Positions 1,229 to 63,944 of a stretch of 64,000 nt of DNA are shown piece after piece; positions within the stretch are counted from its first letter, which is position 1, and every line of letters begins with the position of its first letter. Both the position numbers and the translations under genes were made by a program. The stretch is from a virus, in IMG/VR virus record IMGVR_UViG_3300036832_000803, positions 1 through 64,000 of that record, one strand, 5' to 3'. The notes below the pieces were generated by a model. It worked only from the letters and a program-made list of their open reading frames with translations. It ran no database searches and had not been told where the DNA came from.

Positions 1229-4186
1229 ATGGCGACCGAGCAGGACGAACTACGCTTAACCGTTACCCTGGTCGACAATGCGTCGGCCGGGATCGCGTCG
1301 TTGCGCGGCCAAATTTCGCAGCTTGGCAGCGGCAGCACGGCGGCCAATCTTGAGAATTTCAGGCGCAAGCAGGGCGAGCTTGGCGAGCAGATGAAAGAGT
1401 TGACGGCCCTCGCGGTCGGCGGCGATAAGGCGTTGCTCTCGTACATCGGGAAATTTGGTGCTCTCGGCATTGCCGCCGCTGCCGGGATAGACGTGCTGAA
1501 GACTTTTTCCAACCAGATGGCCAGCGTCAGTCGTGAGGCGAAGCTGATTGGCGTCGGTCCAACGAATTTGCAAAACATCGTTGATCAGTTTCGAAAAGTG
1601 GGTGTCGAAGCCAAGGACACTCAGGCGATGATGGCCAAATTCACAACGACGCTGGTCGAGATCGGGCGGGTCGGCAGCGCGCAACGTGAAAAAATACTCA
1701 GCATGGCCGTCGACCCGGCGAGGATGAACAAGACCATCGAGGCATTGGAAGCGGCGACGACCGCGGAGGACAAGCTATCCATCGCCCAAGAGGAAGGGGA
1801 GAAGATTCGAAAGGCGCGTTACGATGAAGAGTTGAAGCGAACGCACAACGAAGCCCAGGCGAAGGCTGATGCGGCTCGCGCAGAGCAGCAATGGTACGAA
1901 GCGCTCGGCTTGAGTGCGGAGGCGATGGAACGGCACACCGGCAAATTCAAAAACCTGACCGCCGCCGAAGAGGCACAGCTGAAAGTGACTCAGGAAAACG
2001 CGGAAAAGGTCACCAAAGCCTGGGAGGACATTGACGCCGCCGCCGCCAAAGCCGGCCAAAGCATGGTCACCGCATTCGGACCAGCGCTAACGAGTGTGTT
2101 GAGTAAAGTGCCGGGCTTCATCTCGGATATCACCACCGCGATGGGTGGGATGGTTAAGCAAAGCAATCAAGACGTTGAGGCATTGAAAAAATGGGATGTG
2201 AAAACATTCTTGTTCGGCAAATCATCGGAACGGCCGGCACCGATGGCCCCGTTCGCAACGCCGCCGAACGTGACTGCGGTCGACGCGGCGAAGGGCGCGT
2301 GGAGTGGCGTTAAGGGGGTCGCTTCAAAACTTTGGCAAGGTTGGGGATCGGCTGATACTCCCGACGTGCCGCACATGCAGCACGGCGGCATCGTCTCGCG
2401 CGCAACGCTCGCCATGATTGGCGAAGGCGGCCCAGAGGCGGTCATTCCGTTGAGCGGCGCCGGTCGCGGCCCCGGCCAGGAACTCGCGAAGGAAATGAAA
2501 GAGAACACCGAGCAGCTTCGGCGATTGAACGACAAGCTGATGCTGATGACCGGCGGTCGCGGCGGCGGTGGGAGCGTTGGCGGTGGCGGCGGTGGCGTGC
2601 CGTATGGCAGCAGCGTCGGACCCGGCACGGGCGCGGGCGCTGGCGAGTCGGGCGGCGGCGGCGGCATGGGCGGCGGCATTGGCGGCATCCTGGGCAGCAT
2701 CGCGGGCGGCGGTATGGGTGGCCTGGGCGGCATGATGCGCGGGCTCGGCGGCCTGCCTGGGTTCGGCGGCGGCGGCGGCCTGGGCGGCATCATGCGCAGC
2801 ATCACGGGCGGCGGGATGGGCGACCTGGGCGGCGGTGGCGGCGGCCTGGGCGGCATGATGCGCGGGCTCGGCGGCCTGCCGGGGCTCGGCGGTGGCGGCG
2901 GCGGCGCACGCCCTTATGGCAACGATGCCGGCCCCGGCACTGGCGAAGGCGCAGGCGCGACGCCAGCGGGCGCCGACGGCGCAGCCGGCGCGGGCGGCGG
3001 CGGCAGGATCAGCGGCGCGGCATCAACTCGCGGCGGGGCCATCTACCAAAAATTGCTCGCGGCGTACAAAGGTTCAGGACTTGTCGGCGTCGTGCCTCAT
3101 GACGGCGCGAAATTTGGAATCAAAACAGGTTCCGCCGAAGAGTGGGCACGGTTCGGCACGGCCGTCGCCAGCGCCGAGTCAGGGTTCAATCCACGATCTG
3201 CCAACACGTCTGATCCCGGCGGTTCGTTTGGTGTGTTTCAATATGCGCATGGTCAAGTGCCCGGCGGGAATGCCTACGACACAGACGCGTCGGTCAAAGC
3301 GTTTGTGAGAGACTCGGTTAGCTCGGCGCAGGGTCGCGGTGGCCTCGAAGGTGGGATACTCGGCAGGCGATTTTCAACCATCGGAAGGCATCCGCAAAGC
3401 GTCGCCCAGAACATGGGCATCGCGAATCGGATCGCCGCCGGGGCGGCAGATGGTGGCACAGGCAAGGGCGGCTCGGCTGGAGAAGCCACTGAGACGAAAG
3501 CCGTCCCTGGTAGGTTTGCGGCTGATCTCACGGCGATGACGCTGGCCGGTGCCAAGCCGCACAACATCCACGCCTACATGATGCAGCACGGCATCAACCT
3601 CAGTGAAGCGACGTGCGGACAATTCATGGCTTCCGTCGTCAAGGATCACGGTGGCGTTCCGCCTAAAAATGCCGAGACAGCGTCCAGCTGGAACAATTTC
3701 GGCAGCCCCGGATATTCAGATGATCCCAACGCGATCAACATCGCGGTCAGGCAAAATGTTCGCTCCGGGGGAGGATCGCACGTCACGGGCGCCATCCCGA
3801 TCAGGGATAAAAGCGGCAAGATAACTGGATTCCGTGGCGTCGGGGCCAATCAATACAATCCACCGGGGGCGGAACATGGGGTGGGCCAATACGGGCGCGA
3901 CGTTGTCTCCAGCCAAAACCTCAACATCGGCACCGGGCCTCGTGATTATGCCATTCGTCACGAGATCGTCGACGATCGCAACGCGGTTGACGAGGCCGCA
4001 GATCGGACCGTCAAAGTGCAAGGCGACGGCACGTTGACCGCGAACATCACGGCCCCGAAGGGAACGGACGTGAGCATGAAAGGCGGCGGCATTTTCCGCA
4101 AGCTCGCGGTCAATAGACAGCATCAGATGGAACAAGCGCGCGGCGGTCAGGTCGACGCCCCGCACGCTGGCGGCGTCGGCAACTAA
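1229..4186 (+). CDS. Tail tape measure protein with Gly-rich linker and two hydrolase-like domains
   Basis: 985 aa, directly after the chaperone as expected for a tape measure. Residues 1-330 are helical/coiled-coil with hydrophobic stretches near 85-100 and 285-310. Residues about 445-590 are almost pure Gly-rich repeats (GGLGGMMRGLGGLPG-like units). Residues about 600-730 look like a lysozyme/transglycosylase fold (ASAESGFNP, then GGSFGVFQY). Residues about 755-890 carry Cys796 (EATCGQF), His851 (GGSHVTG) and Asn874 (GVGANQ), which fits an NlpC/CHAP-like cysteine amidase. Muralytic domains in tape measures are known to help DNA cross the cell wall. The hydrolase assignments are inference from motifs. 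Confidence 0.88.
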   Translation: MATEQDELRLTVTLVDNASAGIASLRGQISQLGSGSTAANLENFRRKQGELGEQMKELTALAVGGDKALLSYIGKFGALGIAAAAGIDVLKTFSNQMASVSREAKLIGVGPTNLQNIVDQFRKVGVEAKDTQAMMAKFTTTLVEIGRVGSAQREKILSMAVDPARMNKTIEALEAATTAEDKLSIAQEEGEKIRKARYDEELKRTHNEAQAKADAARAEQQWYEALGLSAEAMERHTGKFKNLTAAEEAQLKVTQENAEKVTKAWEDIDAAAAKAGQSMVTAFGPALTSVLSKVPGFISDITTAMGGMVKQSNQDVEALKKWDVKTFLFGKSSERPAPMAPFATPPNVTAVDAAKGAWSGVKGVASKLWQGWGSADTPDVPHMQHGGIVSRATLAMIGEGGPEAVIPLSGAGRGPGQELAKEMKENTEQLRRLNDKLMLMTGGRGGGGSVGGGGGGVPYGSSVGPGTGAGAGESGGGGGMGGGIGGILGSIAGGGMGGLGGMMRGLGGLPGFGGGGGLGGIMRSITGGGMGDLGGGGGGLGGMMRGLGGLPGLGGGGGGARPYGNDAGPGTGEGAGATPAGADGAAGAGGGGRISGAASTRGGAIYQKLLAAYKGSGLVGVVPHDGAKFGIKTGSAEEWARFGTAVASAESGFNPRSANTSDPGGSFGVFQYAHGQVPGGNAYDTDASVKAFVRDSVSSAQGRGGLEGGILGRRFSTIGRHPQSVAQNMGIANRIAAGAADGGTGKGGSAGEATETKAVPGRFAADLTAMTLAGAKPHNIHAYMMQHGINLSEATCGQFMASVVKDHGGVPPKNAETASSWNNFGSPGYSDDPNAINIAVRQNVRSGGGSHVTGAIPIRDKSGKITGFRGVGANQYNPPGAEHGVGQYGRDVVSSQNLNIGTGPRDYAIRHEIVDDRNAVDEAADRTVKVQGDGTLTANITAPKGTDVSMKGGGIFRKLAVNRQHQMEQARGGQVDAPHAGGVGN

Positions 4187-4715: not shown

Positions 4716-5380
4716 AAAAACCGGACTCGACCGAGGCCGGTGGATTGGTTGAGCGCTTGGTCAAGCGACTCGCAGTCACCATCTCGGCGACCGACCAGAG
4801 CGGAGCGACGGCGCGCGCGGCGCTCGGCGATCTGAGGGCGAACAGATTCGCCTATCTCGCCGCCGACACGCTCGGCGCCCCGATGCGAAATTGCTTCGAC
4901 CTCGTGCGTCAGGCCGGCGCGACCCAGGCGAAGATCGCCAACGTGCTAAGCCTGACCGAGGCCGAGACACCCGTCACGCTCGGCGCGACATTGGTGCAGA
5001 CTTCGGCGATTTACTTCTGCCTTGCAACGCAAGCGCAGATCATCGCAAGCATGACGTTCACGAGCCGGCAGGATGTCGATGCATTGCGCGCGGCGCTGCT
5101 GGCGCCATTCAGCACTGCCGAAGAGACCGCCGCCGATGGCATGGCGCAAGCAAGCTTTATGGCGCTGATCCAACTCGACGCCGCGGTGATGAATTTTCTC
5201 ATCACGTCGGCGTCGCCGCTCCCGCGCATGGTCGCCTACCAATTCGCCGACATCCTGCCCAGCTTGGTCGTCGCCTATCGGCTCTATCAGGACGCGGGCC
5301 GGGCCGATCAGATCGTGCAGGAAAACAAGATCGTGCATCCGGCATTTTGCCCAACGGCCGGGCTGGCGCTGTCGGCGTGA
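4712..5380 (+). CDS. Baseplate-associated protein, probable C-terminal half of the DNA circularisation protein
   Basis: 222 aa, starting at an ATG that overlaps the upstream stop (ATGA). It is mainly helical, with a hydrophobic stretch around LVQTSAIYFCLATQAQIIA and an Ala-rich middle. I recognise no catalytic motif. Its position between a DNA_circ_N protein and the gp44-like hub, plus the shortness of the upstream gene, suggests that the roughly 490-aa Mu protein is split into two polypeptides here. That relationship is inferred from order and combined length, not from visible similarity. Confidence 0.65.
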   Translation: MKKPDSTEAGGLVERLVKRLAVTISATDQSGATARAALGDLRANRFAYLAADTLGAPMRNCFDLVRQAGATQAKIANVLSLTEAETPVTLGATLVQTSAIYFCLATQAQIIASMTFTSRQDVDALRAALLAPFSTAEETAADGMAQASFMALIQLDAAVMNFLITSASPLPRMVAYQFADILPSLVVAYRLYQDAGRADQIVQENKIVHPAFCPTAGLALSA

Positions 5381-30337: not shown

Positions 30338-30420
30338 CGGCTCATCTCCTTTGTTTGTCCGCACGCAAAGGCCCTATGGCGTCATGCCGGTGCTTTTGGC
30401 GCGCGTTTGTCAAAAAAGAT

Positions 30421-58689: not shown

Positions 58690-58922
58690 GTCGGCGCCCT
58701 CTCGATCTCGATCGGTTCGTTGTTGGGCAGGCAGCGATAAACCCCGGCGTCGTCGAGCAGCAGCGGCATCGTGCCGATGCAGCCGGCGATCATGGCCTCG
58801 GTCGCGAACACGTCCCACTCGATGAACAGCGAGCGCTCGTTCTCCGACGCGATCATGATCCGGCCCGGTACTTCCTTGCCGCGCCACCTGATGATGATGG
58901 AGTCGCCGGTGCACAGCGTCAT
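58686..58922 (-). CDS. Hypothetical protein
   Basis: 78 aa. GDSIIIRWRGKEVPGRIMIA then LFIEWDVFATEAMIAG: small beta barrel. ENERSLF resembles the ENERS element of the 62.4-kb protein, suggesting a distant relation between these two. Coupled to the ParB gene by a 4-nt overlap. Confidence 0.58.
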   Translation of the reverse strand: MTLCTGDSIIIRWRGKEVPGRIMIASENERSLFIEWDVFATEAMIAGCIGTMPLLLDDAGVYRCLPNNEPIEIERAPT

Positions 58923-59818
58923 GTTCCGGTTCTCCGATACGGAAGCACGATGCGGCCTTGCGCGGCGATCTGGCGTAGCTCGCGCTCCATATGGCCGCAC
59001 GTTTTGGCGATGGCGTTGAGTCGATCGGCCATCGTGCCGGCGCGATCAAGGCTGACGCGCGCGGCCACGACGCATTCGCCGTTGCGCCAGCCGGCGCCGA
59101 GAAGCTTCGACGCCTCTTCGATCCGCGCCTCCATCGCGGTGAGCCTGCGCGCCTCTTCGCGCGACGGCTTGGGCGCGGCATCGCCGAAGATGTCGGCTTG
59201 GGTCGCGCCTTCGATGATGGCGTCGACCGCGTTGCGCACCGCCTTCCAGCCTTGCAACTGCCCGCGGCTGATCAGGCGCAGAATGCGATGCTGTGCCCGG
59301 TGATCGGTCAGGCGGGAAATTTCCATCGCCTGTTGCCGGTCGATCTGGTCGGCCTCGAATAGCCGCAAGATCGGCGGCGCCAGATTGAGCAGCTGGAGCC
59401 GCCAGCGCACCCGGAAGACGGCACAGCCGACTTGCTTGGCGATTTGCTCGGGCTCCAACCCGCGTTTTGCCAGTCGCGCAAAGCCCCTCGCCTCTTCGAT
59501 CGGCGAGATGTCCTGGCGCTGAAGGTTCTCGACGATCGCGGCAATGTCGCGGGCGAGATCGTCCAGGCGAACGACGGTCGCCTTGATGGTCGAGAAGCCC
59601 TTGATGCCGCGGTCGGCCAACAGCTTGTGCGCGCGCCAGCGGCATTCGCCGGCGACGATCTCGAAGCGGCCGCGACGGTGCGGGCGCACGGTGATCGCTT
59701 GCAGGAGCCCTTGCGCGCGGATGGATGCGGCCAAGCCTTCGATATGCGCCGCGTCGAACGTCTTGCGCGGCTGATCCGGATTCGGATCGATCTTGGCGAG
59801 GGCGATGTTGCGCGTCAC
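58919..59818 (-). CDS. ParB/RepB/Spo0J-family protein (GTG start)
   Basis: 299 aa. The N-terminal domain LAKIDPNPDQPRKTFDA, SIRAQGLLQAITVRP, GECRWRAHKLLAD and the bridging ENLQRQDISPIEEARGFARL, followed by the HTH EQIAKQVGCAVFRVRWRLQL, is a complete ParB. No parA is seen in the window, so segregation is not implied; single phage ParBs often regulate or load on DNA. A hairpin leader precedes the GTG. Confidence 0.9.
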   Translation of the reverse strand: MTRNIALAKIDPNPDQPRKTFDAAHIEGLAASIRAQGLLQAITVRPHRRGRFEIVAGECRWRAHKLLADRGIKGFSTIKATVVRLDDLARDIAAIVENLQRQDISPIEEARGFARLAKRGLEPEQIAKQVGCAVFRVRWRLQLLNLAPPILRLFEADQIDRQQAMEISRLTDHRAQHRILRLISRGQLQGWKAVRNAVDAIIEGATQADIFGDAAPKPSREEARRLTAMEARIEEASKLLGAGWRNGECVVAARVSLDRAGTMADRLNAIAKTCGHMERELRQIAAQGRIVLPYRRTGT

Positions 59819-59857
59819 AGGTGACTCCGTTTGGTTGTTCGCCGTTTGCAGCGGCGT
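59819..59857 (-). promoter_or_regulatory. Leader hairpin element, copy A
   Basis: On the minus strand: stem CGCCG, loop CTGCAAA, stem CGGCG, then AACAACCAAACGGAGTCACC just before the start codon. Shared with three other genes (copies B-D); stem bases change in a compensating way. Confidence 0.75.
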
Positions 59858-60363
59858 TAGTGGCGCGTCCCGCGGGCCGGAAGGAAGCCGACCATGCGGC
59901 CGTGGGATTGGAACGTGCCGCCGCGCGGGACGTGCGGAAGGTCGGTCAGCATTTCGAGCGGCGCGAGGTACGGGCGCCGATGGCGCGGCCGAATGATGCG
60001 GCGATGCGCGGCCAGCATTCCCGCATCCAGGTCTTCGCCCAGGATCGAAACGACTTCGACCCGATCCGGGTGCGCGGCGACGCCGTGTTGTTCGATAAAG
60101 GCAATCTCGTCGTCGGAGATCAAGCGCGCAAGCGTCCAGGATTCAAAGACGAATATATAGCGCACGACATCGCGAAGCTCGAAGTAGGCGCGGACCATCG
60201 CGACGGCCATGTCTTTGTTTGGGTGCGGCGGCTCCAATTCGAAATATTCGCTGGTCGCCGTGACGCCGTGCCACGTCGGGGAGACCACGCCGGTTTTGTT
60301 GAATAAGCGTTCGCTCCCGGTGGAAGCAAACGCGATCATGTCGCGCAAATCTTTTTCGCTCAT
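59857..60363 (-). CDS. Hypothetical protein
   Basis: 168 aa from the ATG overlapping the upstream stop (a start at 60378 is possible). LRDMIAFASTGSERLFNKTG, then DMAVAMVRAYFELRDVVRYI, FVFESWTLARLISDDEIAFI and a loop with HPDRVEVVSILGED. The order matches phage proteins with a DEIAF...H..R.E.V...ED core. Function unknown. Confidence 0.62.
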   Translation of the reverse strand: MSEKDLRDMIAFASTGSERLFNKTGVVSPTWHGVTATSEYFELEPPHPNKDMAVAMVRAYFELRDVVRYIFVFESWTLARLISDDEIAFIEQHGVAAHPDRVEVVSILGEDLDAGMLAAHRRIIRPRHRRPYLAPLEMLTDLPHVPRGGTFQSHGRMVGFLPARGTRH

Positions 60364-60992
60364 GTCGGCCTCGGCCATTTTTTCGAGCGATTGAATTGCA
60401 GCGGCTCGCCGTCGCGGCCCTGCTCATAGGCGCTCTCGATCACCCCGGCGATCAGGCCCGCCAGATAGATGCGCGCCGTATGGCTGATGGCGCCGGGCTT
60501 GAGCAAGTCCATGATCGCGAACGCCGCGACCTGGGCCGGTCGGGCGTCTGGCGCGCGCGGATCATGCAGGCTCGGATAGGTGTGTTCTGGTTCCGGGTCG
60601 GGCGCTTTGCCTTGCGCGAAGGTGGCGCCCATGCTGGCGAAGCCGGCCTGATAGATACGGCCAAGCTCGGCCATGCCCTTGGCATGCTCGCGCAAGCCGG
60701 GTTCGGCCGCGCCCTTGGCGATGAAATCGAAAGCATCGGCCTGCGAGCGCATCACCGCCAGCATGCCGGGATGCGCGTTGACGAAATAGAGCGCAATGTC
60801 GCGATCTTCCTCGCGCTGGAAATTGGCGATCAACATTCCAACGTCGTCAGCCCTTGCAATGCCGTAATCCCCGAGCGACCCAGGCGCCTTTTGCCACGGC
60901 GTCGACGAATGCTGGCCGCCAGTCGGGTTGGCGGTATCAATCAAATGCCGGATGTAGGCGGCTTCGGCTTCGATCTGTTCACGCGTGACCAT
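60360..60992 (-). CDS. Helical protein whose C-terminal domain is duplicated at 16.0 kb
   Basis: 210 aa. N-terminal part: EAEAAYIRHLIDTANPTGGQ, REEDRDIALYFVNAHPGMLA, then AKGMAELGRIYQAGFASMGA. The last 75 residues (EPEHTYPS, LLKPGAISH, YEQGRDGEPLQF) match 16034-16297 closely. Function unknown. The ATG lies 14 nt past the radical SAM stop. Confidence 0.65.
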   Translation of the reverse strand: MVTREQIEAEAAYIRHLIDTANPTGGQHSSTPWQKAPGSLGDYGIARADDVGMLIANFQREEDRDIALYFVNAHPGMLAVMRSQADAFDFIAKGAAEPGLREHAKGMAELGRIYQAGFASMGATFAQGKAPDPEPEHTYPSLHDPRAPDARPAQVAAFAIMDLLKPGAISHTARIYLAGLIAGVIESAYEQGRDGEPLQFNRSKKWPRPT

Positions 60993-61006
60993 GTCCGTTT
61001 CGCCTT

Positions 61007-61813
61007 TCAATGGTGCTGCGGGACGCGCAGCGGGTTGGGATAGCCGGCGGGCAGGTAGGATTGCAGATCGCGCTTGATGTAGTGGCGCGCGTCGAGCCAA
61101 TTGAGCACGGCGACCATGCGGTGCGTGTAGTCGCACCAATCGGTCGTCTTCGTCATTGGCAGATAGTTGACGCGGCCGACCTTGTAGAGATCGACGAATT
61201 CGTGCGTCGCCTTGACGATCGCAATCGACGCGTCAACGTCCAGCGTCGGTTCAAGCGAAACCCAAGTGAAGATGCCGCGATCGTGGAACGCCTTGATGGC
61301 CGCGATCCGATCGGCCGGGAGCGCGGCGTTGCGTTCCCATTTTTTCGAAAAGCGTTCGTCGAGCGACGTGAGCGTGGAAGCGAAGGCGTCGCGATCCGCG
61401 CGGAATAGATCGATGTCGCGGAGCGCGCGCGTGCCGCCCTTGGTGAGCGTGCAGATGCCGAGCCCGGCGCCGATCAGTGTTTCGAGCGTCGCCCGCGTCA
61501 GGCTGTTGTCGCCCGGATGGTACGGGTCGGTCGTGAACGAAAGCATGACCTGGGCGCGCACGCCCGCGGCCTTGTACTTGGCGGCGTCGGAGCGCAGTAC
61601 GTCGAGATAGTCACGGCGCGGGACAGCGCCCGCGTCGAATTCCGCGCGGGGCTGATGCGTGACCAGCGGCACGTAGCAATAGGCGCAGCCGTGGCCGCAG
61701 CCGCGATAGGGATTGGTCGCGAGCGGCGAGTATTCGCCGGCCTGCCCTTTCGGGGCGTAGATGATGCGGCAACCCCGAACGGAGACGCCGTCGTCATTTA
61801 GTGTCGGTTTCAT
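61007..61813 (-). CDS. Radical SAM protein (SplB/PA0069-like)
   Basis: 268 aa. The cluster motif is CGHGCAYCYVP, preceded by SPLATNPYRG as in the spore-photoproduct-lyase-like group. Further on: MLSFTTDPYHPGDNSLTRAT, LTKGGTRALRD, STLTSLDERFSKKWE and FTWVSLEPTLDVD. These enzymes bind a 4Fe-4S cluster and SAM; roles in the group include DNA photolesion repair and unknown reactions. It is adjacent to a regulator gene by a 4-nt overlap. Confidence 0.87.
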   Translation of the reverse strand: MKPTLNDDGVSVRGCRIIYAPKGQAGEYSPLATNPYRGCGHGCAYCYVPLVTHQPRAEFDAGAVPRRDYLDVLRSDAAKYKAAGVRAQVMLSFTTDPYHPGDNSLTRATLETLIGAGLGICTLTKGGTRALRDIDLFRADRDAFASTLTSLDERFSKKWERNAALPADRIAAIKAFHDRGIFTWVSLEPTLDVDASIAIVKATHEFVDLYKVGRVNYLPMTKTTDWCDYTHRMVAVLNWLDARHYIKRDLQSYLPAGYPNPLRVPQHH

Positions 61814-62016
61814 GCGATCCTCTTCGATGCGCGCGGGCGGTCGACCAGCAGCGTGATCGCAACGCGGGTCTGTCGCTTTATCGGCTGCTCGCCTTGCTCC
61901 CAGCGGATGACGGTGCGTTTCGATACGCCGAGTCGCGCGCCGAATTCGGTCTGCGTAAGGCCGAGACGTTCACGCGACTGGCGGACGAATTCGGCGTCGG
62001 TTGGGTGCGGTGTCAT
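61810..62016 (-). CDS. XRE-family regulator
   Basis: 68 aa. RQSRERLGLTQTEFGARLGV then SKRTVIRWEQGEQPIKRQTR is a complete HTH with a short tail. It is the first gene after the promoter at 62.05 kb and probably controls it through the upstream direct repeats. CGGAG precedes the ATG. Confidence 0.85.
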   Translation of the reverse strand: MTPHPTDAEFVRQSRERLGLTQTEFGARLGVSKRTVIRWEQGEQPIKRQTRVAITLLVDRPRASKRIA

Positions 62017-62048
62017 GGGGTCTCCGGTTCATATTGGTCCCTAGCGTT

Positions 62049-62077
62049 TATATGTGCCAAACTGTCACCTGCGTCAA
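62049..62077 (-). promoter_or_regulatory. Promoter of the 62.0-kb minus-strand operon
   Basis: On the minus strand: -35 TTGACG (62072-62077), 17-nt spacer, -10 CATATA (62049-62054). Directly upstream of -35 lie two 18-bp direct repeats. It lies 33 nt from the XRE start codon. Confidence 0.65.
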
Positions 62078-62086
62078 TGTGTTTTG

Positions 62087-62134
62087 GTCGGCAAAGTGTT
62101 GGGCCAGCTTTCGCAAGTCGGCAAAGTGTTGGGC
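62087..62134. repeat. Two 18-bp direct repeats upstream of the XRE promoter
   Basis: GTCGGCAAAGTGTTGGGC at 62087-62104 and again at 62117-62134, perfect, 30 bp apart (about three helical turns). Likely protein-binding sites for a regulator. Confidence 0.7.
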
Positions 62135-62323
62135 AGACTTTCCCTTGACCCGACTCGATGCGGGCGCCATATCGATTTGCGCCCGCCGCATTCTCCCGCC
62201 CAGGCGATGCTGTGGCGTCCGGGTCTTGCAACGGCTCGGTTTTTGTTTCGATCGCTGGGGAGTTTGTTTCCGTTTGTTTGGCTCCCCCCTGGGGCCGGCT
62301 TTGCAGGCGCGGTCCCGTCGAAC
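62135..62323. other. Intergenic stretch with no recognised element
   Basis: The remainder of the 360-nt gap between the XRE gene and the 62.4-kb gene. I see no frame with a start signal and no further repeats. Confidence 0.5.
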
Positions 62324-62362
62324 AAAAAAAAGCCCCCGGCATCTCTCGCGGATGTCGGGGGC
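62324..62362 (-). terminator. Terminator of the 62.4-kb gene
   Basis: On the minus strand an 11-bp stem CCCCCGACATC with GATGCCGGGGG (one mismatch), short loop, then eight T. It ends the transcript before the XRE promoter. Confidence 0.85.
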
Positions 62363-62376
62363 GGTTGTTTCCAGAT

Positions 62377-62841
62377 TCAGTGCGTCAATCCCTTCGCCGG
62401 TTCCGGCCGGGCGATGTTCCAGCCGGGCGACTCATCGTAGCCGGGCAGGCGCATGATCGCGCGCTTGCGGATGGCATCGATGATCGTGCAGGCGATCGAT
62501 GATTTGTAATCGTCCGTTTCGCACGCCTGATAGTCGAAGCATTCGCAAGCCTTCAGGATCACGAGCGGCGACGGCGTTCGCGCGAACGGCCGGAACGTGT
62601 AGCCCGCGGCGTCGTCGCCGATCGAGCCGGGCAGATCGCCCAGCGCGTCGTCGGGATAGCGGTGGCGAACGCTGCGCTCGTTTTCGGTGAGCAGGATGCG
62701 ACCGATCTCGGTCGCGTTGGTGCTGACGATCTCGATCAGCGTTTCGTTAGCCGTGTAGACGACGCCGCGGCCGTAGCTCTTGCACAAGGCGAACGTAAGC
62801 AAGGCGTCGATATGATCGTGATCGACGATGTAGGCAGACAT
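62377..62841 (-). CDS. Hypothetical protein with conserved alpha/beta core
   Basis: 154 aa. SAYIVDHDHIDALLTFALCK, then TANETLIEIVSTNATEIGRI, LLTENERSVRHRYPDD and KACECFDYQACETDDYKSS. The strings YIVD..HI and LL.EN..SV.HRYPD are typical of a phage family of unknown function. A hairpin leader (copy B) precedes the ATG and a terminator follows, so it forms its own unit. Confidence 0.72.
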   Translation of the reverse strand: MSAYIVDHDHIDALLTFALCKSYGRGVVYTANETLIEIVSTNATEIGRILLTENERSVRHRYPDDALGDLPGSIGDDAAGYTFRPFARTPSPLVILKACECFDYQACETDDYKSSIACTIIDAIRKRAIMRLPGYDESPGWNIARPEPAKGLTH

Positions 62842-62881
62842 TGGTGACTCTCCGTTTGGTTTGACGCCGTTTGCAGCGGCG
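62842..62881 (-). promoter_or_regulatory. Leader hairpin element, copy B
   Basis: Minus strand: CGCCG, CTGCAAA, CGGCG, then a spacer and ACCAAACGGAGAGTCACC before ATG. Confidence 0.75.
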
Positions 62882-62888
62882 GTCGGGT

Positions 62889-63116
62889 TTAAGCTAGGGG
62901 CTCGGTTGATCGCCAGTAGTGCATCACCTTGAGGCCCGGCGGATTGGCGAAGGTCCGAAGGTGGGAGATCACGAGCCCGCGCGCGACGAGACCGTCGAGC
63001 GTGGCCTGGGTCACGCCGCGCGCTTCGAGCGCTGGGCCGGTGGCGCCGGTGCTACAGGTTGCCAGGAGCGCAAGGGCCTTGCGCTCCGCAGCCGTCAGTT
63101 TTTGATTGTTGGTCAT
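62889..63116 (-). CDS. Winged-helix-like small protein
   Basis: 75 aa. KLTAAERKALALLATCSTGA, then LEARGVTQATLDGLVARGLV and HYWRSTEPLA: helices then a wing, as in MarR-like or phage winged helices. Function unknown. ATG overlaps the upstream stop. Confidence 0.6.
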   Translation of the reverse strand: MTNNQKLTAAERKALALLATCSTGATGPALEARGVTQATLDGLVARGLVISHLRTFANPPGLKVMHYWRSTEPLA

Positions 63117-63544
63117 TGTTTCGGGATCGCCAGCAGCGTCTTGACCCAGCCGAGATCGTTCATCGCGTCATTCAGTTTTTGAATGTACGGAAGCAACGAC
63201 CCATAGGAGGCGCAAAACTTAAGTGGTCCGGCCGCATTAAGTTCCTCTTTGACTTCGCTCGTAACCTCTGCGCCGATCTTGTGGCGTTCGTCTTCGGGGA
63301 TTTCCTTTACAAGGACGTTCAACAAATCGAGGTTATCGACGGCCAAACCATCGCGCTTCCCAACGAACGGGACATCGCAAAAATGCGAGGCGATCATGGC
63401 CTTGGTTAGGACTTTCGAGAACGATGGCAGCTGCTCCCGAATTCCAGGCCATGCGGCGGATGACGTAAGGGCAGAGGGCAGTTCGGCGTGTGCCGGGAGT
63501 GACGCGCAGAGCGCGATTGTCGCGGCGATTAAGGTCTTTCTCAT
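63113..63544 (-). CDS. Exported (periplasmic) hypothetical protein
   Basis: 143 aa. A clear Sec signal peptide (RKTLIAATIALCASLPAHA, cleaved after AHA). The mature part is helical: FSKVLTKAMIASHFCDVPFV, LLNVLVKEIPEDERHK, GPLKFCASYGSLLPYIQKL; two Cys could pair. Not lysis-related in place. A host-changing lysogenic function is possible. It has the copy C hairpin leader. Confidence 0.7.
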   Translation of the reverse strand: MRKTLIAATIALCASLPAHAELPSALTSSAAWPGIREQLPSFSKVLTKAMIASHFCDVPFVGKRDGLAVDNLDLLNVLVKEIPEDERHKIGAEVTSEVKEELNAAGPLKFCASYGSLLPYIQKLNDAMNDLGWVKTLLAIPKQ

Positions 63545-63588
63545 TTTGGTGAACTCCGTTTGGTTGTTCGCCGCTTTGCAGGCGGCGT
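63545..63588 (-). promoter_or_regulatory. Leader hairpin element, copy C
   Basis: Minus strand: CGCCGC, CTGCAAA, GCGGCG, then AACAACCAAACGGAGTTCACC before ATG. The stem is one pair longer than in A and B. Confidence 0.75.
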
Positions 63589-63607
63589 GATGCTGGATGC
63601 ATCAATG

Positions 63608-63627
63608 CTGCGGCCCGCGGGCCGCAG
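63608..63627. repeat. 20-bp perfect palindrome in a non-coding gap
   Basis: CTGCGGCCCGCGGGCCGCAG, in the gap 63589-63680 between two minus-strand genes. Could form a strong hairpin; a terminator without a T run or a protein site. Confidence 0.6.
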
Positions 63628-63680
63628 TGTTTGATGGATCGGCTTTTACAGAACGAAGCGATCTTCACTGGCCTCGCGGT

Positions 63681-63905
63681 TCATTGGGCGATTCCTTTCC
63701 GGTAGCTCACGACCAGATCGAAGGTCGCGGCGTTGAAGACCTGATAGGTGATGGCGGGACATTGCGTGCTGCGCCATTGCGCGATGTCGCGGGCCAGGGC
63801 TTCGTCATAGACGAGCGCGAGCCCTTGCGACTTGGCTGTGCCGCCGATCGCGGAATACGCGACGATGGAAAAGAGTTGGTTGATAGGTTCGTGGTCGTTT
63901 GGCAT
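63681..63905 (-). CDS. Hypothetical protein
   Basis: 74 aa. NQLFSIVAYSAIGGTAKSQG, then YDEALARDIAQWRSTQCPA and FNAATFDLVVSYRKG. Beta-rich; no family recognised. Translation signal is the GGAG in the copy D leader. Confidence 0.6.
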   Translation of the reverse strand: MPNDHEPINQLFSIVAYSAIGGTAKSQGLALVYDEALARDIAQWRSTQCPAITYQVFNAATFDLVVSYRKGIAQ

Positions 63906-63941
63906 TGGTGACTCCGTTTGGTTGGCCGCTTTGCAGGCGGC
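63906..63941 (-). promoter_or_regulatory. Leader hairpin element, copy D
   Basis: Minus strand: GCCGC, CTGCAAA, GCGGC, then CAACCAAACGGAGTCACC before ATG. Confidence 0.75.
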
Positions 63942-63944
63942 GCG

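What the first reader, a model, noticed from the sequence alone, without database searches (positions are those of the whole stretch)
59819..63941. Hairpin leader repeated before four genes with covarying stems
Copies at 59819, 62842, 63545 and 63906 share loop CTGCAAA and the ribosome-site segment CCAAACGGAGTCACC directly before the start codon. Stems change in a compensating way (CGCCG/CGGCG versus CGCCGC/GCGGCG). The downstream genes are otherwise unrelated (ParB, a conserved unknown, an exported protein, a small unknown). This looks like an undescribed RNA or translational control element that sets these genes as one regulon.
Basis: seen in the sequence. Interest (0 to 1): 0.68.

Follow-up and report, generated by a model that had tools for sequence, protein, structure and literature searches.

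The report
Repeated foldable leader before phage genes
A little-known group of environmental phages puts a near-standard foldable RNA leader (one hairpin in the short form, four helices in the long form) in front of most genes of one operon; the pairing is preserved by compensating changes, and cousins of this phage carry self-cutting hammerhead-like ribozymes in the same places, so the leader probably cuts or protects the message and keeps each ribosome site open.

Summary
All four window copies exist, on the minus strand, each directly before a gene. At least four close copies lie in the last 5.7 kb of the same 69.7-kb virus record, outside the window. The four window copies alone do not show true covariation (the stems differ by an inserted pair), but relatives do: hairpin P4 keeps a GCA-centred loop while its stem changes by compensation. 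A covariance model finds it in related phages sharing a MoxR-DUF3150-VWA operon; 28 of 28 hits in loci not used to train it lead straight into an open reading frame.

The window hairpin is the last part of a longer leader, parsed in 63 copies: P1, P2, P3, P4, then GGAGTCA and the start codon. P1 and P3 share one strand, so only one can form at a time, and both covary. Rfam has no such family. In same-family phages (MoxR 66-68% identical) and more distant ones, hammerhead-like ribozymes occupy the same intergenic places. Best reading: an intercistronic processing and 5'-end module that leaves each ribosome site open. The mechanism is inferred. 'One regulon set by the RNA' is unproven; a shared DNA operator-like site links both transcription units.

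The parts
59819..59856 (-). Leader copy 1 (P4 hairpin, linker, SD) before the ParB gene; begins directly after the TAA stop of the upstream gene
   Evidence: CM R1 51.2 bits, E 1.8e-9 (used in training)
58919..59818 (-). ParB-like gene (299 aa, GTG start) behind leader 1
   Evidence: Pfam ParB_N 2.2e-21, HTH_ParB 7.9e-12; PHROG ParB families
62842..62881 (-). Leader copy 2 before the 154-aa gene
   Evidence: R1 40.9 bits, E 4.8e-7
62377..62841 (-). 154-aa gene behind leader 2, no family match
63545..63587 (-). Leader copy 3 (P4, linker, SD) before the 143-aa gene
   Evidence: R1 34.6 bits, E 1.5e-5 (used in training)
63589..63640 (-). Upstream part of leader 3, type B: P1 5' arm (63631-63640), P2 hairpin (63608-63627), P1 3' arm (63596-63605) sharing bases with the P3 5' arm (63599-63603), P3 3' arm (63589-63593)
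   Evidence: sequence; fold -45.1 kcal/mol, z -4.8, 0/200 shuffles
63113..63544 (-). 143-aa gene with signal-peptide-like N-terminus, behind leader 3
   Evidence: no family match
63906..63942 (-). Leader copy 4 before the 74-aa gene
   Evidence: R1 36.0 bits, E 7.1e-6 (used in training)
63681..63905 (-). 74-aa gene behind leader 4
   Evidence: no family match
62332..62363 (-). Terminator-like hairpin followed by a T-run on the minus strand, separating the ParB unit from the unit upstream
   Evidence: read; the scanner listed this stem only on the other strand, probably because of one A-C mismatch
62054..62068 (.). Palindromic operator-like site GTGCCAAACTGTCAC upstream of the HTH gene; a near-identical site lies at record 68826-68840 inside the predicted operon promoter
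   Evidence: 2 matches, 0 in 200 shuffles
61810..62016 (-). 68-aa HTH regulator, candidate to bind that site
   Evidence: Pfam HTH_31 1.4e-9, HTH_3 2.5e-9

Best explanation
A cis-acting, structured intercistronic mRNA leader that processes and protects the message and sets up the ribosome site. In its full form the long P1+P2 stem (about two helical turns with a small internal loop) forms in the uncut transcript directly after the stop codon of the upstream gene. The stem is cut near its base, most simply by RNase III, less likely by the RNA itself. Removal of the P1 5' arm frees the shared strand, which refolds into P3; P3 and P4 then stand as hairpins at the new 5' end, followed by an A-rich unstructured linker and a uniform Shine-Dalgarno (GGAGTCA). 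Most leaders of the window phage are the reduced form (P4, linker, SD), which should act as a structural insulator keeping the SD open. Shown here: the structure, its covariation, the position before genes, the mutually exclusive helices, and hammerhead-like elements at the same places in relatives. Inferred: cutting, which enzyme, 5'-end protection, effect on translation. The confidence is for the mechanism; that this is a real conserved RNA element I put near 0.93.
For: P4 covariation 0.385 versus 0.091 shuffled, 0/500. 28/28 hits in loci not used for training lead into an ORF start within about 10 nt (random positions 26%), all on the operon strand. Sixty-three full leaders parsed; P1 was not required to pair for selection, yet own arms pair better than permuted arms (0/1000 permutations reach the observed value), while a control pairing is not significant. 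On the alignment of full leaders P1 is 88% paired with 24 double-changed cells (5.8 in shuffles) and P3 95% paired with 15 (2.5 in shuffles), using the same columns 26-31. In the intact RNA the P1 state is the more stable in 56 of 63 (median 3.7 kcal/mol), so P3 needs the P1 5' arm to be removed or occupied. Hammerhead-like ribozymes stand in the same intergenic positions in relatives: in L153 (MoxR 68% identical, four type II matches, E 2.8e-7 to 1.6e-6, just below the Rfam cut-off, before genes with the same GGAGT(C/A)A site), in L161/L162 (66%), and in L198 (one over the cut-off), L202 and L076. In L076 and L202 the stem I 3' strand can refold with downstream sequence after cleavage, the same topology as P1/P3. 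None of the P4 hairpins of the record is in the terminator-like list.
Against: No transcript or cleavage data. Reduced leaders (P4 only) are too short for RNase III, so cutting cannot explain every copy. The conserved loop core of P4 points to recognition by something, which a plain insulator does not need. The upstream stop codon usually lies in or next to the P1 5' arm, equally expected for a ribosome-coupled switch. Minimal leaders are not unusually stable. The hammerhead comparison is by position and topology, not homology.
Confidence: 0.42

Rival explanations
1. Translation-coupled switch: the ribosome that ends the upstream gene sits on the P1 5' arm, opens P1 and lets P3 form; the P1 or P3 state then sets initiation at the next gene, so neighbouring genes are made in fixed ratio.
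For: In most full leaders with a clear upstream ORF (45 of 55 within the 0-9 nt bins) the stop codon lies close to the P1 5' arm, very often as the TGA of TGATCACTA itself. P1 and P3 share a strand and both covary. P1 is the stable state only while its 5' arm is free.
Against: Neither state hides the SD, which lies in an open linker after P4. A type B element also stands before the first gene of the operon in the window phage, some 300 nt after the predicted promoter, with no clear upstream gene. Hammerheads at the same places in relatives need no ribosome.
Confidence: 0.2
2. Translational operator: a phage or host RNA-binding protein recognises the P4 hairpin through its loop (core GCA) and turns the marked genes up or down together.
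For: Loop core conserved (CTGCAAA, CTTGCAA, CTTGCA, CTGCAA, CCGCAAC) while stems vary; the hairpin sits mostly 8-20 nt before the GGAG of many unrelated genes.
Against: No accompanying RNA-binding protein was identified; the loop drifts between lineages; the spacing to the SD varies, and P4 does not overlap the SD as in classical operators; one leader (L182:5083) has P3 in place of P4.
Confidence: 0.18
3. Only a strong ribosome site copied between genes; the hairpin is a passive spacer with no role beyond keeping the SD open.
For: GGAGTCA plus A-rich linker is the best conserved part in the window clade; minimal leaders are not unusually stable.
Against: Compensating stem changes and the conserved loop across lineages, and the extra covarying helices P1 and P3.
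Confidence: 0.12
4. DNA-level element (promoter or protein-binding inverted repeats), as proposed for the ESAS of Cluster K mycobacteriophages.
For: Repeated inverted repeats before genes, one orientation (PMC3203893).
Against: Here the arms vary and covary while the loop is conserved, the reverse of a DNA operator; gaps of about 45 bp in the reduced leaders leave little room for a promoter; promoter-like sites are no more frequent than in shuffles.
Confidence: 0.04

Closest known systems
Start-associated sequences (SAS/ESAS) of Cluster K mycobacteriophages (Pope et al. 2011, PMC3203893)
   Same: A short conserved block with an SD core directly before many phage start codons, about half with an upstream inverted repeat, on genes of unrelated families, in one orientation
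   Different: Other sequence (GGGATAGGAGCCC); the authors found that departures in the ESAS arms do not generally support RNA pairing and favoured DNA-binding sites, whereas pairing here is supported by covariation
Tandem hammerhead ribozymes flanking phage and prophage genes (Perreault et al. 2011, PMC3088659)
   Same: [quoted passage not shown] some of our relatives carry hammerhead-like elements at the same positions
   Different: No CUGANGA/GAAA core and no Rfam hammerhead match in the leaders of the window phage or in the long leaders P1-P4
RNase III processing sites between early genes of phage T7 (own knowledge)
   Same: Intercistronic hairpin of roughly two helical turns with an internal loop, cut to give separate mRNAs with terminal hairpins
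   Different: The shared-strand P1/P3 arrangement and the conserved P4-SD cassette are not part of T7 sites; cutting untested here
5' stem-loops that stabilise mRNA, and ribosome standby sites (own knowledge)
   Same: Hairpin next to an unstructured linker and SD
   Different: Those are not a repeated, covarying family with a conserved loop before many genes

Membership tests
Any Rfam 15 family | Covariance-model score at or above the gathering cut-off | tested here: not met
   Only a marginal tRNA at 30420 in the window; nothing in seven related loci; no credible hit in permissive searches of the leader regions
Hammerhead ribozyme | CUGANGA and GAAA core with three stems | tested here: not met
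   No match in the window record or in leaders of type P1-P4; core scan and Rfam models find such elements only in other relatives
SAS/ESAS of Cluster K phages | 13-bp block GGGATAGGAGCCC before the start codon | tested here: not met
   Consensus here is AAACGGAGTCACC
SAS/ESAS of Cluster K phages | 17-bp inverted repeats whose departures do not keep RNA pairing | tested here: not met
   Stems here covary
Intrinsic terminator | GC-rich hairpin followed directly by a T-run | tested here: not met
   No P4 hairpin of the record in the terminator-like list; the sequence after P4 is A-rich
RNase III processing site | Double-stranded stem of about 20 bp | tested here: inconclusive
   P1 (8-9 pairs, often one mismatch) plus P2 (about 7-12 pairs) approaches this length in full leaders; reduced leaders do not
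RNase III processing site | Cut by RNase III in vivo or in vitro | not testable with these tools
   Needs RNA from infected cells or in vitro cleavage
tRNA anticodon-arm mimic | 5-bp stem, 7-nt loop with U33 | tested here: inconclusive
   CTGCAAA and CTTGCAA fit, but 6-nt loops and loops without U33 (CCGCAAC, TCGCAAC) are common

The most novel reading that the evidence does not exclude
The P1-P2-P3 module is a bistable RNA device that no database describes, possibly an unrecognised self-cleaving ribozyme: it occupies the positions that hammerhead-like ribozymes hold in relatives, has the same product-refolding topology, and keeps a small junction (C or G, then A, before the P1 3' arm) in two unrelated sequence types.
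Probability: 0.09. Interest if true: 0.9.

Novelty: new variant of a known kind. Interest (0 to 1): 0.62.

Why it matters
Start-associated repeats in phage operons have been known for years without a function. This family has real RNA covariation, two competing helices, dozens of natural variants, and relatives where hammerhead-like ribozymes stand in the same slots, so the question 'what are leaders before every phage gene for?' becomes directly testable by RNA end mapping and reporters. It also gives a compact, natural RBS-insulating cassette.

Tried and rejected
Rfam at strict and permissive thresholds: nothing. First viral pattern scan: 33 of 34 hits were chance matches without hairpin or start codon; only L006 was real. 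Second scan: the true hits were MoxR-family phages, six others looked like chance. Named phages: no DNA match; MoxR and DUF3150 proteins at most about 39% identical, so no close cultured relative. Bacterial genome contigs: MoxR relatives at most 51% identical; five of them searched with the model gave no significant hit. ParB as anchor: three distant loci, no leaders. A type A leader pattern scan of viral contigs returned only contigs already known. Terminator idea: rejected for P4, though some R1-negative relatives (L138, L158) do have T-runs after a hairpin. tRNA-mimic idea: not consistent across loops.
Full report
What is there. The window is bases 1-64000 of a 69,726-bp virus record. On the minus strand four genes (ParB, 154 aa, 143 aa, 74 aa) are each preceded by a hairpin with loop CTGCAAA, an A-rich linker of roughly 10 nt and CGGAG(n)TCACC before the start codon. 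The exact pattern has four matches in the whole record, all here, none for the reversed control; hairpin plus GGAG is found 4 times in the window and never in 30 Markov-simulated windows. The last 5.7 kb of the record, not in the window, hold at least four more close copies before a 65-aa protein, a MoxR-type AAA ATPase, a DUF3150-like protein and a DUF2201 metallopeptidase/VWA protein, and diverged ones before two further small genes. The leader is therefore a feature of a leftward operon that the window cuts in two.

Is it an RNA structure? With relatives it holds. Using the MoxR protein, 24 related viral loci were found, later more with the VWA protein and a MoxR alignment. Thirty-eight hand-parsed leaders give 25 different stem-loops in which the four pairs next to the loop never break and flip between G-C and C-G; that set was chosen for pairing. 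On alignment A2 the covariation score is 0.385 against 0.091 for shuffles (0/500), and every slid register collapses. A covariance model built from it finds leaders in loci that did not train it; of 28 such hits with E up to 0.05, all 28 run into an open reading frame of at least 30 codons within about 10 nt, against 26% at random positions. Hits in the related records cluster in the same operon region and on its strand.

The longer leader. In most relatives, and in the window phage before the DUF3150 gene (record 66705, type A) and, in a second sequence type (B), before the 143-aa gene (window 63589-63640) and the first gene of the operon, more helices precede P4. Order: P1 5' arm (type A: TGATCACTA), GC-rich hairpin P2, P1 3' arm (TAGTGTTCA), P3 3' arm (GAACACT), P4, linker, GGAGTCA, start. 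The strand AGTGTTC can pair upstream (P1) or downstream (P3), not both. Sixty-four long leaders from 21 loci were parsed by script after removing obvious noise; one doubtful one was dropped later, leaving 63. P3 and P4 were selected for pairing, P1 was not. Own-arm pairing beats permuted arms for P1, P3 and P4 (0/1000), and a control combination does not. On alignment A5, in which the inner part of P2 was cut out to ease alignment, P1 has 24 double-changed cells (5.8 in shuffles) and P3 has 15 (2.5 in shuffles), both 0/500, both registers sharp. P1 is often mismatched at one pair (18 of 39 at columns 5/29) where P3 is intact. Energies: in the intact RNA the P1 state is favoured in 56 of 63 leaders, by a median 3.7 kcal/mol. 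So P3 is the state expected when the P1 5' arm is cut away or covered. The upstream gene usually ends in or just before the P1 5' arm: in 45 of 55 leaders with a clear upstream ORF the stop codon is within about 10 nt, often the TGA of TGATCACTA.

What stands in the same place in relatives. A scan for hammerhead cores on both strands of all loci held gave seven hits, all shortly upstream of genes in operons of this kind. L153, whose MoxR is 68% identical to that of the window phage, has four type II hammerhead matches (E 2.8e-7 to 1.6e-6, 32-35 bits against a cut-off of 37) before genes with ACGGAGT(C/A)A or GGAGTCA sites; the stem II looks weak by eye. L161/L162 (MoxR 66%) have one before MoxR (E about 1e-4, below the cut-off). 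L198 has one over the cut-off; L202 and L076 have core matches below it. In L076 and L202 the 3' strand of stem I also pairs downstream, so that after cleavage the new 5' end becomes a hairpin. Perreault et al. had already proposed that tandem hammerheads cut long phage transcripts into operon- or gene-length mRNAs (PMC3088659). By position and topology P1+P2 corresponds to the cutting domain, P3 to the hairpin formed by the product. This is analogy, not homology.

How it most likely works. I favour an intercistronic processing and 5'-end module: P1+P2 is cut, P3 and P4 fold as 5' hairpins, and the A-rich linker keeps a uniform SD open. RNase III is the simplest cutter, since the stem is roughly two turns long and conserved sequence is sparse; self-cleavage cannot be excluded. 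The reduced P4-only leaders, which are most of those in the window phage, would then serve mainly as RBS insulators. The main rivals are a switch driven by the ribosome ending the upstream gene, and a protein-bound translational operator read through the loop core GCA.

Regulon. The ParB gene lies beyond a terminator-like hairpin (minus strand, about 62332-62363), so the leaders are in at least two transcription units. Two near-identical palindromes, GTGCCAAACTG(G/T)CAC, lie in the predicted operon promoter (record 68826-68840, between a TTGCAA and a TATATT hexamer) and upstream of the phage HTH gene (window 62054-62068). The promoter prediction itself is no better than chance for a region of this size (2 found, 2.0 expected). 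That DNA site is still the better candidate for common control.

Known or new. No Rfam family, no similar DNA in named phages. The nearest described thing is SAS/ESAS of Cluster K mycobacteriophages, where the authors found little support for RNA pairing; the other neighbour is tandem phage hammerheads. I call it a new variant of a known kind: repeated leaders before phage genes, here with demonstrated RNA covariation and two competing helices.

Limits. All relatives are virus contigs, nearly all from metagenomes and several near-identical, so counts are not independent events. Hosts are unknown. The covariance model was trained on part of the copies it then scored, most of the window copies among them. 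No expression data exist here.

Noticed in passing
L153:3060-3130, 3596-3660, 3889-3950, 4853-4920: Four type II hammerhead-like ribozymes (E 2.8e-7 to 1.6e-6, just below the Rfam cut-off) directly before successive genes of a phage in the same family as the window phage.
   Followed up: partly
L076:9880, 11000, 12020, 13560, 15090, 16450: At least six hammerhead-like cores (CUGACGA..GAAA) before genes, most followed by a shared-strand hairpin and a CGGCGCTGGAA(A)CGCCG hairpin; only three pass the strict core scan and none passes the Rfam cut-off.
   Followed up: partly
L198:6871 and 8957; L202:6879; L161:4316-4466; L075:2029: Further hammerhead-like elements in front of MoxR or other genes in more distant phages.
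   Followed up: partly
window 62054-62068 and L005:12827-12841: Near-identical palindromes GTGCCAAACTG(G/T)CAC, one inside a predicted promoter and one upstream of the HTH gene; a likely repressor operator of the phage.
   Followed up: partly
L143:6870-6986; L158:6850-6968; L163:6200-6321; L138:2140-2260: A third leader type before MoxR by eye: different sequence, P1/P2/P3-like shared-strand layout in some, but the last hairpin is followed by a T-rich stretch, as in a terminator.
   Followed up: no
L005:12346-12530 (record 68345-68529): The first gene of the operon has a type B P1-P3 followed by a very long imperfect stem with CGCAAAGCGG arms (fold -84 kcal/mol over 173 nt).
   Followed up: no
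L005:8184-8220 (record 64183-64219), with L056 and L055 equivalents: Leader with a different hairpin (CCGGGTGGCCTACGGGCCATCCGG, other loop); similar hairpins stand behind the VWA gene in relatives.
   Followed up: no
window 61007-61813: Radical SAM protein (weak photolyase-like PHROG match) in the ParB unit, without a leader.
   Followed up: no
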